Positions 24,905 through 59,837 of a stretch of DNA of 64,000 bases are shown here, piece by piece. The notes beneath the pieces are model-generated. The model was given only the letters and a program-made list of their open reading frames with translations. It had not been told where the DNA came from and did no database searches. Origin of the DNA: Tubiluchus corallicola (taxonomy: Eukaryota; Priapulida; Priapulimorpha; Priapulimorphida; Tubiluchidae); assembly GCA_030141605.1 (NCBI GenBank), contig JAQGDQ010000052.1, positions 248,001-312,000 of the forward strand. The letters are read 5' to 3'. Position 1 is the stretch's first letter. Every line of letters begins with the position of its first letter. A program made the translations under genes and the position numbers.

Positions 24905-59837
<34,933 letters not shown>

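What the first reader, a model, noticed from the sequence alone, without database searches (positions are those of the whole stretch)
58203..58205. Gene B cyclase has Glu/Thr instead of Glu/Cys at the purine-selecting pair
The sequence shows PHYTVFGD in gene B against PRYCLFGD in gene A. In class III cyclases a Glu and a Cys select guanine, whereas adenylate cyclases use Lys with Asp or Thr. Gene B keeps Glu1033, both metal Asp residues, Asn1112 and Arg1116, so it looks catalytically competent with a hybrid selector. It may be a cyclase with altered or relaxed nucleotide preference (inference).
Basis: partly seen in the sequence, partly recalled or inferred. Interest (0 to 1): 0.72.

Follow-up and report, generated by a model that had tools for sequence, protein, structure and literature searches.

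The report
Receptor guanylyl cyclase with Cys-to-Thr pocket
One of many receptor enzymes that an animal probably uses to make the messenger cGMP has a threonine where a cysteine usually sits in the pocket that recognises GTP; the same swap turned up in four other genes of this genome and seems to have arisen at least twice, but the enzyme most likely still makes cGMP.

Summary
Codon 58203-58205 is ACT (Thr) in exon 11 of receptor guanylyl cyclase (rGC) gene B; the tandem paralog A has TGC (Cys). Both give open, GT-AG spliced 13-exon models with identical phases. B keeps the selector Glu, both metal Asp, Asn, Arg and a KGKG Lys. Cys to Thr needs two base changes, so a one-base error cannot explain it.

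New here: the Thr is not unique. Of 69 exon rows read from this 343.5-Mb genome, 49 have Cys, 15 Asp (adenylyl-cyclase type) and 5 Thr: B, the next tandem copy C, and genes on contigs C1272, C1465 and C389. All five keep Glu; C389 has lost a metal Asp. A tree with the Thr column masked gives two Thr clades (one clade: AU p 0.020), but it is short and many forks are weak. dN/dS is about 0.06 within each clade, with saturated dS.

The proposed relaxed nucleotide preference is weakly supported. Known guanylyl cyclases carry many second residues beside Glu, and Thr can donate to guanine O6 as Cys or Ser can. An engineered Glu/Thr bacterial enzyme used both ATP and GTP, so dual use is not excluded. 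Best reading: a GTP-using rGC with a recurrent, retained second-selector replacement.

The parts
58203..58205 (+). ACT codon: Thr at the second purine-selecting position (Cys, TGC, in gene A at 16216-16218)
58159..58257 (+). gene B exon 11, [33 protein letters not shown], with transition-state Asn (58224-58226) and Arg (58236-58238)
56132..56213 (+). gene B exon 9, ends VYKVETIG; selector Glu codon 56204-56206
56819..56980 (+). gene B exon 10, second metal Asp 56821-56823
53648..53771 (+). gene B exon 8, first metal Asp 53724-53726; motif SDICDFT where gene A has SDIVGFT
46583..53286 (+). gene B exons 1-7 (numbered from the first exon of the shared model): kinase-homology domain and linker helix, 46583-46780, 46989-47093, 47391-47462, 49840-49999, 51172-51321, 52564-52744, 53146-53286
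59025..59116 (+). gene B exon 12, end of cyclase domain; Lys of the KGKG motif at 59114-59116 (phosphate-binding role inferred)
59391..59837 (+). gene B exon 13, C-terminal tail with stop
24902..25309 (+). gene B 5' coding stretch: start of ANF_receptor ligand-binding domain (boundaries approximate; link to gene B inferred from order and strand)
25649..25846 (+). gene B: next ANF_receptor stretch (boundaries approximate)
42495..42614 (+). open stretch holding a candidate transmembrane segment of gene B (hydropathy and eye only)
1271..18287 (+). gene A: tandem paralog, 13 matched exons, Glu/Cys; its 5' part presumably lies left of the window

Best explanation
Gene B encodes a membrane receptor guanylyl cyclase (ANF-type ligand-binding domain, kinase-homology domain, class III cyclase domain). 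It probably works as a homodimer that makes cGMP from GTP. Glu reads guanine N1/N2; the Thr hydroxyl takes the place of the Cys thiol next to guanine O6, or merely shapes the pocket. The Cys-to-Thr change probably happened in the ancestor of the tandem copies B and C and, separately, in another branch of the same expanded family, and has been kept under purifying selection. Shown: sequence, gene structure, intact catalytic residues, five Thr paralogs that keep Glu, low dN/dS in the exons compared. Supported by a short tree: two origins. Inferred: GTP as main substrate, homodimer, chemical role of Thr.
For: Pfam Guanylate_cyc 205.6 bits and kinase domain; ANF_receptor stretches upstream; best match among solved structures is atrial natriuretic peptide receptor 1, 1e-82, 133 of 196 aligned residues identical; catalytic residues kept; Glu in all five Thr genes; NG86 dN/dS 0.128/2.23 for B against C; two clades, AU p 0.020. 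Of 59 bacterial relatives, 49 have a residue aligned at the Glu column and none of these is Glu; the other 10 have a gap there beside a Lys motif. Literature passages: the second guanine position is less conserved and Glu dominates (PMC7384201); Thr is listed among GC residues (PMC4215837); Glu/Gly in Cya2 (PMC4886424); Glu/Ala in Toxoplasma GC1 (PMC6592433).
Against: No enzyme data for a natural Glu/Thr receptor cyclase turned up in my searches. The engineered Ma1120 K101E/D157T used both nucleotides, kcat/Km 3.16 for ATP and 0.227 for GTP, x10^6. The second position is not always tolerant: in the Xanthomonas GC XC_0250, which has Ala there, A150S lost activity (PMC3770947). The authors of PMC7384201 caution that their complex, in which the Cys faces away from guanine, is inactive, and speculate that the missing Cys bond is why. 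B differs from A, NPR1 and GC-C at 12 of 102 sites where those three agree, R137H, C139T and L140V among them, so the pocket may differ by more than one residue.
Confidence: 0.75

Rival explanations
1. Relaxed or dual-specificity cyclase: Glu/Thr lets B turn over ATP as well as GTP, so one ligand would raise both cGMP and cAMP.
For: Engineered Glu/Thr Ma1120 is dual (PMC4215837); Thr is an ATP-selecting residue with Lys (PMC5967339, PMC7384201); the change seems to have arisen twice here.
Against: Ma1120 is an AC scaffold whose Glu/Cys version also still preferred ATP (0.107 against 0.038, same table), so the result may reflect the scaffold; in GCs the Glu is thought to dominate (PMC7384201); Lys is absent from B.
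Confidence: 0.14
2. Catalytically dead or partner-only cyclase: B has drifted and works, if at all, as a heterodimer partner.
For: B departs at 12 of 102 sites where A, NPR1 and GC-C agree; in the paralog C389 the second metal Asp is replaced (GDAY to ENVY); receptor GC heterodimers with complementary sites are known (PMC7939455, PMC5225109, passages).
Against: B keeps the two metal Asp, Glu, Asn, Arg and Lys; frame and splice sites are intact; dN/dS is low.
Confidence: 0.09
3. Assembly or sequencing artefact.
For: Only one assembly was available; no reads.
Against: Two base changes are needed; the paralogs C and C1272 (ACG) and C389 (ACC) carry Thr by other codons than ACT, and C1465 carries Thr too.
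Confidence: 0.02

Closest known systems
Atrial natriuretic peptide receptor 1 / GC-A (PDB 9bcv and others)
   Same: Cyclase domain 133 of 196 residues identical to B, same catalytic residues and selector Glu
   Different: Cys at the second selector position; PRYCLFGD instead of PHYTVFGD
Guanylyl cyclase C (PDB 8fx4)
   Same: Receptor GC cyclase domain, 209.9 bits to B
   Different: Cys at the second position; 56% identity to gene A's domain
Bacterial class III adenylyl cyclases with Lys/Thr
   Same: Thr at the second position
   Different: Lys instead of Glu at the first; receptor architecture not examined
Ma1120 K101E/D157T (engineered, PMC4215837, passage)
   Same: Glu/Thr pair
   Different: Bacterial AC scaffold, laboratory mutant, dual substrate use
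Cya2 (Glu/Gly, PMC4886424) and Toxoplasma GC1 (Glu/Ala, PMC6592433), passages
   Same: Guanylyl cyclases (Toxoplasma: by knockdown and inference) without the Cys
   Different: Gly or Ala, not Thr; other organisms and architectures

Membership tests
Receptor guanylyl cyclase | Class III cyclase catalytic domain | tested here: met
   PF00211, 205.6 bits against a cut-off of 21.9
Receptor guanylyl cyclase | Kinase-homology domain before the cyclase | tested here: met
   PF07714, 124.4 bits; HGN where active kinases have HRD (read from the sequence; the motif is recalled)
Receptor guanylyl cyclase | ANF-type extracellular domain | tested here: met
   PF01094 on 2 of the 10 open stretches tested (one of the 10 an RT fragment); not joined into one model
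Receptor guanylyl cyclase | Single transmembrane segment | tested here: inconclusive
   Hydrophobic candidate in 42495-42614, one of several hydrophobic open stretches listed; splice borders not established
Guanylyl cyclase | Glu at the first purine selector | tested here: met
   56204-56206
Guanylyl cyclase | Cys at the second selector (typical, not defining: Ser, Thr, His, Ala, Gly are reported beside Glu) | tested here: not met
   Thr; PMC4215837 passage
Guanylyl cyclase | cGMP production from GTP | not testable with these tools
   needs an enzyme assay
Class III adenylyl cyclase | Lys at the first selector | tested here: not met
   Glu

The most novel reading that the evidence does not exclude
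In one expanded receptor-cyclase family the guanine-side Cys was replaced by Thr at least twice and kept by selection because it changes enzyme behaviour, giving receptors that make both cGMP and cAMP, or whose nucleotide pocket no longer has an oxidisable thiol.
Probability: 0.13. Interest if true: 0.75.

Novelty: new variant of a known kind. Interest (0 to 1): 0.4.

Why it matters
The genome holds tandem Glu/Cys (A) and Glu/Thr (B, C) receptor cyclases plus what looks like a second, separate Glu/Thr branch: a natural, replicated test of what the second purine selector does in a guanylyl cyclase scaffold, a point on which structures and mutants do not agree. If Thr left GTP use unchanged, it would support the view that Glu carries guanine specificity.

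Tried and rejected
Rejected: (1) gene B as pseudogene: frames, splice sites and catalytic residues intact. (2) Thr unique to B: four more genes carry it. (3) One Thr clade: AU p 0.020; two changes also; a single change in 0 of 200 bootstrap trees. But the trees have 85-86 columns, many forks are open, the starred branches alone force only one change, and the data had been seen before the test. (4) SDICDFT in B as a sign of inactivity: other paralogs carry E, A, R or D at the same Gly. (5) Bacterial Glu/Thr precedents: none among 59 relatives (49 with a residue at the Glu column, 10 with a gap, one row K/I probably misaligned, one R/D row also lacking Asn and Arg); the scan's patterns favour animal-like motifs, so this is no survey of bacterial GCs.

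Not done or failed: organism not identified, six COX1 requests unanswered; 'animal' is inferred from the gene family and introns. Rfam at gathering thresholds: no match. A Thr-motif pattern search of the genome did not complete. YN00 dN/dS gave no value for the pairs tried, NG86 gave no finite dS for 9 of 15 pairs, and the dN/dS of the whole A-B catalytic region was never printed because that script stopped. Folding was not tried: the spliced domain is not readable from one stretch. Papers opened without use: PMC2447327 (no term found), PMC6284317, PMC6787079, PMC5746546. One search (Glu-Thr and Cys-to-Thr phrases with guanylyl cyclase) listed three papers; the Glu-Thr in PMC6592433 is a P4-ATPase motif, the other two were seen as listings only.

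Rows dropped: the tree leaves out six rows (C596, C1988, C1461, C2289, C562, C1893) for length or gaps; further GC-type exons were never put in either tree. Of the 69 rows, two Cys rows (L011|5038, L017|2263) and one Asp row (L026|1845) are fragmentary or chance; C1338 and C1677 give the same exon, C397 and C793 too, so rows overstate gene number. Of the 62 places, 61 lie in loci that I read; C1761:803923 was not fetched. One search also matches places that I did not read (such as C1687 and C2185:1440802); its reversed control had 13 matches against 27, so single matches are not proof, but gene C's lies inside the exon found. Family counts are therefore lower bounds.

Full report
What was checked. 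The codon at 58203-58205 is ACT, Thr, inside [28 protein letters not shown]. Gene A, about 42 kb upstream in the same orientation, has TGC, Cys, at 16216-16218. I built spliced models of the shared part of both genes: 13 exons each, A at 1271-18287 and B at 46583-59837, GT-AG borders throughout, identical intron phases, no internal stop; the products (699 and 670 aa) align over 526 positions with 66% identity. Pfam sees a kinase domain and Guanylate_cyc in both. Upstream of B, two stretches at 24902-25309 and 25649-25846 match the ANF_receptor ligand-binding family; seven other open stretches tried as candidate exons gave no convincing family match and one more a weak reverse-transcriptase match. 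An open stretch at 42495-42614 holds a candidate transmembrane segment (hydropathy and eye only). B is therefore most likely a complete receptor guanylyl cyclase gene; its 5' exon borders were not established.

Active site. Aligned with gene A, NPR1 and GC-C (the human rows come from the PDB alignments printed), B keeps both metal Asp, the selector Glu, Asn and Arg of the transition state, Arg118 and Lys187. The roles of the residues follow PMC7384201 and PMC6592433 (passages); those of Arg118 and Lys187 are assigned by motif. At 102 sites A, NPR1 and GC-C agree; B departs at 12: V3I, T22S, I23V, V29C, G30D, M94L, L96N, L99M, R137H, C139T, L140V, L158M. At the Gly-30 position other paralogs in this genome also depart (E in five loci, D in two, A and R in one each), so that change is not special.

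The Thr is recurrent. The window lies in a 343.5-Mb assembly in 2344 contigs. A search with B's exon 11 gave 62 matches, 61 of them in loci that I read. Across the fetched loci and the window, a profile of this exon aligned 69 rows: 49 Cys, 15 Asp, 5 Thr. Three rows are fragmentary or chance (two Cys, one Asp) and a few are near-copies, so these are not gene counts. Thr occurs in B (ACT), in a third tandem copy C at C1027:340192 (L049, ACG), in C1272 (L045, ACG), in C389 (L074, ACC; codons) and in C1465 (L069). Glu precedes in all five: B, C (TACAAAGTGGAAACAATTG, YKVETIG; the place lies inside the exon found), C1272 (VETIG), C1465 (VETLG) and C389 (VETLE). In C389 the motif GDAY reads ENVY, so its second metal Asp is lost. 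The first metal Asp is present in C1272 and was not read in C, C389 and C1465.

Origins and selection. A tree of exons 10 and 11 with the Cys/Thr column masked (34 rows, 85 columns) needs two changes: B with C (100/98) and C1272 with C389 and C1465 (83/52; 93/93 in the larger, unmasked tree). Holding all five together lowers the log-likelihood by 17.5, AU p 0.020; 0 of 200 bootstrap trees have one change. Against this: the branches marked as well supported force only one change, the alignment is short, and I had seen the tree before the test, although the group was named by the trait. Intron positions agree with two clades: in A, B and C the exon homology breaks inside TIG|DAY, in the three others before VETIG, VETLG or VETLE; Cys-bearing genes with the second position also exist. 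dN/dS by NG86 over 84 codons is 0.128/2.23 for B against C and 0.161/2.65 for C1465 against C389. dS is saturated (no finite value for 9 of 15 pairs; YN00 gave none), so only 'well below 1' should be read. Thr has thus outlived extensive silent change in both groups.

Bacterial comparison. A scan with the alignment A1 found 59 bacterial relatives. Their selector pairs read Lys/Asp 40, Lys/Thr 7, gap/Thr 10 with a VDK or IDK motif beside the gap, Lys/Ile 1 (probably misaligned) and Arg/Asp 1; no aligned residue is Glu. So in this sample Thr goes with a Lys motif, as expected of adenylyl cyclases; the scan favoured animal-like motifs and cannot give a frequency.

Literature, read in passages only (PMC4215837 also abstract). 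PMC4215837: GCs have Glu with Cys, Ser, Thr, His, Ala or Gly; Ma1120 K101E/D157T has kcat/Km 3.16 (ATP) and 0.227 (GTP) x10^6 at pH 8, K101E/D157C 0.107 and 0.038; at pH 7.5 the Glu/Thr mutant lost 84% of AC activity and gained 236% of GC activity against wild type. PMC7384201: second guanine residue less conserved; in a GTP complex the Cys faces away from the base; Glu is taken to play the major part; the authors note that the complex is inactive and speculate that the missing Cys bond is the reason. PMC5967339: Glu and Cys to Lys and Asp converts a GC to an AC; ACs use Lys with Asp or Thr. PMC4886424: Cya2 is Glu/Gly. PMC6592433: Toxoplasma GC1 is Glu/Ala. PMC3770947: a bacterial GC with Ala at the position, where A150S lost activity, so the position is not freely exchangeable in every enzyme. 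PMC7939455: RetGC1 subunits with complementary defects form a working heterodimer. PMC5225109: obligate rGC heterodimers in C. elegans. PMC1435932: several lineage-specific expansions of receptor GCs in animals.

How it most likely works. B is expected to sit in the membrane as a dimer, to be switched by an unknown ligand, and to make cGMP. Glu takes guanine N1/N2. Thr can donate a hydrogen bond to O6 as Cys or Ser can (chemical inference), or only shapes the pocket. Asp, the AC residue, is an acceptor and suits the adenine amine; Thr can be either, so some ATP use cannot be ruled out. I put GTP as the main substrate at 0.75, appreciable dual use at 0.14, no activity of B alone at 0.09 and artefact at 0.02.

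Verdict. Its inference of a hybrid selector goes further than the evidence. What raises the finding above an ordinary variant is that the same replacement seems to have arisen at least twice in one expanded receptor family and has been kept. I recall no assay of a natural Glu/Thr receptor cyclase, and none showed in the listings of my nine paper searches, in a library that lacks most subscription journals.

Noticed in passing
L003, L004 (C99), L007 (C2207): Guanylyl cyclases in single open frames of 658, 672 and 764 aa, unlike the intron-rich members; L003's frame also shows a kinase-like domain by eye. Possible retrocopies or foreign contigs.
   Followed up: partly
L001, L002, L006, L008 (C1962, C239): Adenylyl-cyclase-like domains (Asp at the second selector) in open frames of 342-569 aa (the L008 match has stops inside); G+C of these loci 0.37-0.41.
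   Followed up: partly
L074 (C389): Glu/Thr paralog whose GDAY motif reads ENVY: second metal Asp replaced by Asn, yet the frame is open; possible pseudocyclase or heterodimer partner.
   Followed up: partly
L010, L011, L013, L015, L016: Five loci with SDIVEFT instead of SDIVGFT, an acidic residue at a position whose backbone is said to bind phosphate.
   Followed up: no
window 36102-36266: Weak reverse-transcriptase match (RVT_1, E 4e-4, below the curated cut-off), between the upstream and downstream exons of gene B; likely a LINE remnant.
   Followed up: no
window 23949-24122 and 51856-51953: Perfect two-copy tandem duplications with periods of 86 and 50 bp.
   Followed up: no
window 58518-58701, 44461-45064, 31871-32522: Long microsatellites: TATATC about 31 copies shortly after the Thr exon, TATG about 152 copies, and a TTTACC/ATCTTT array of about 108 units.
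   Followed up: no
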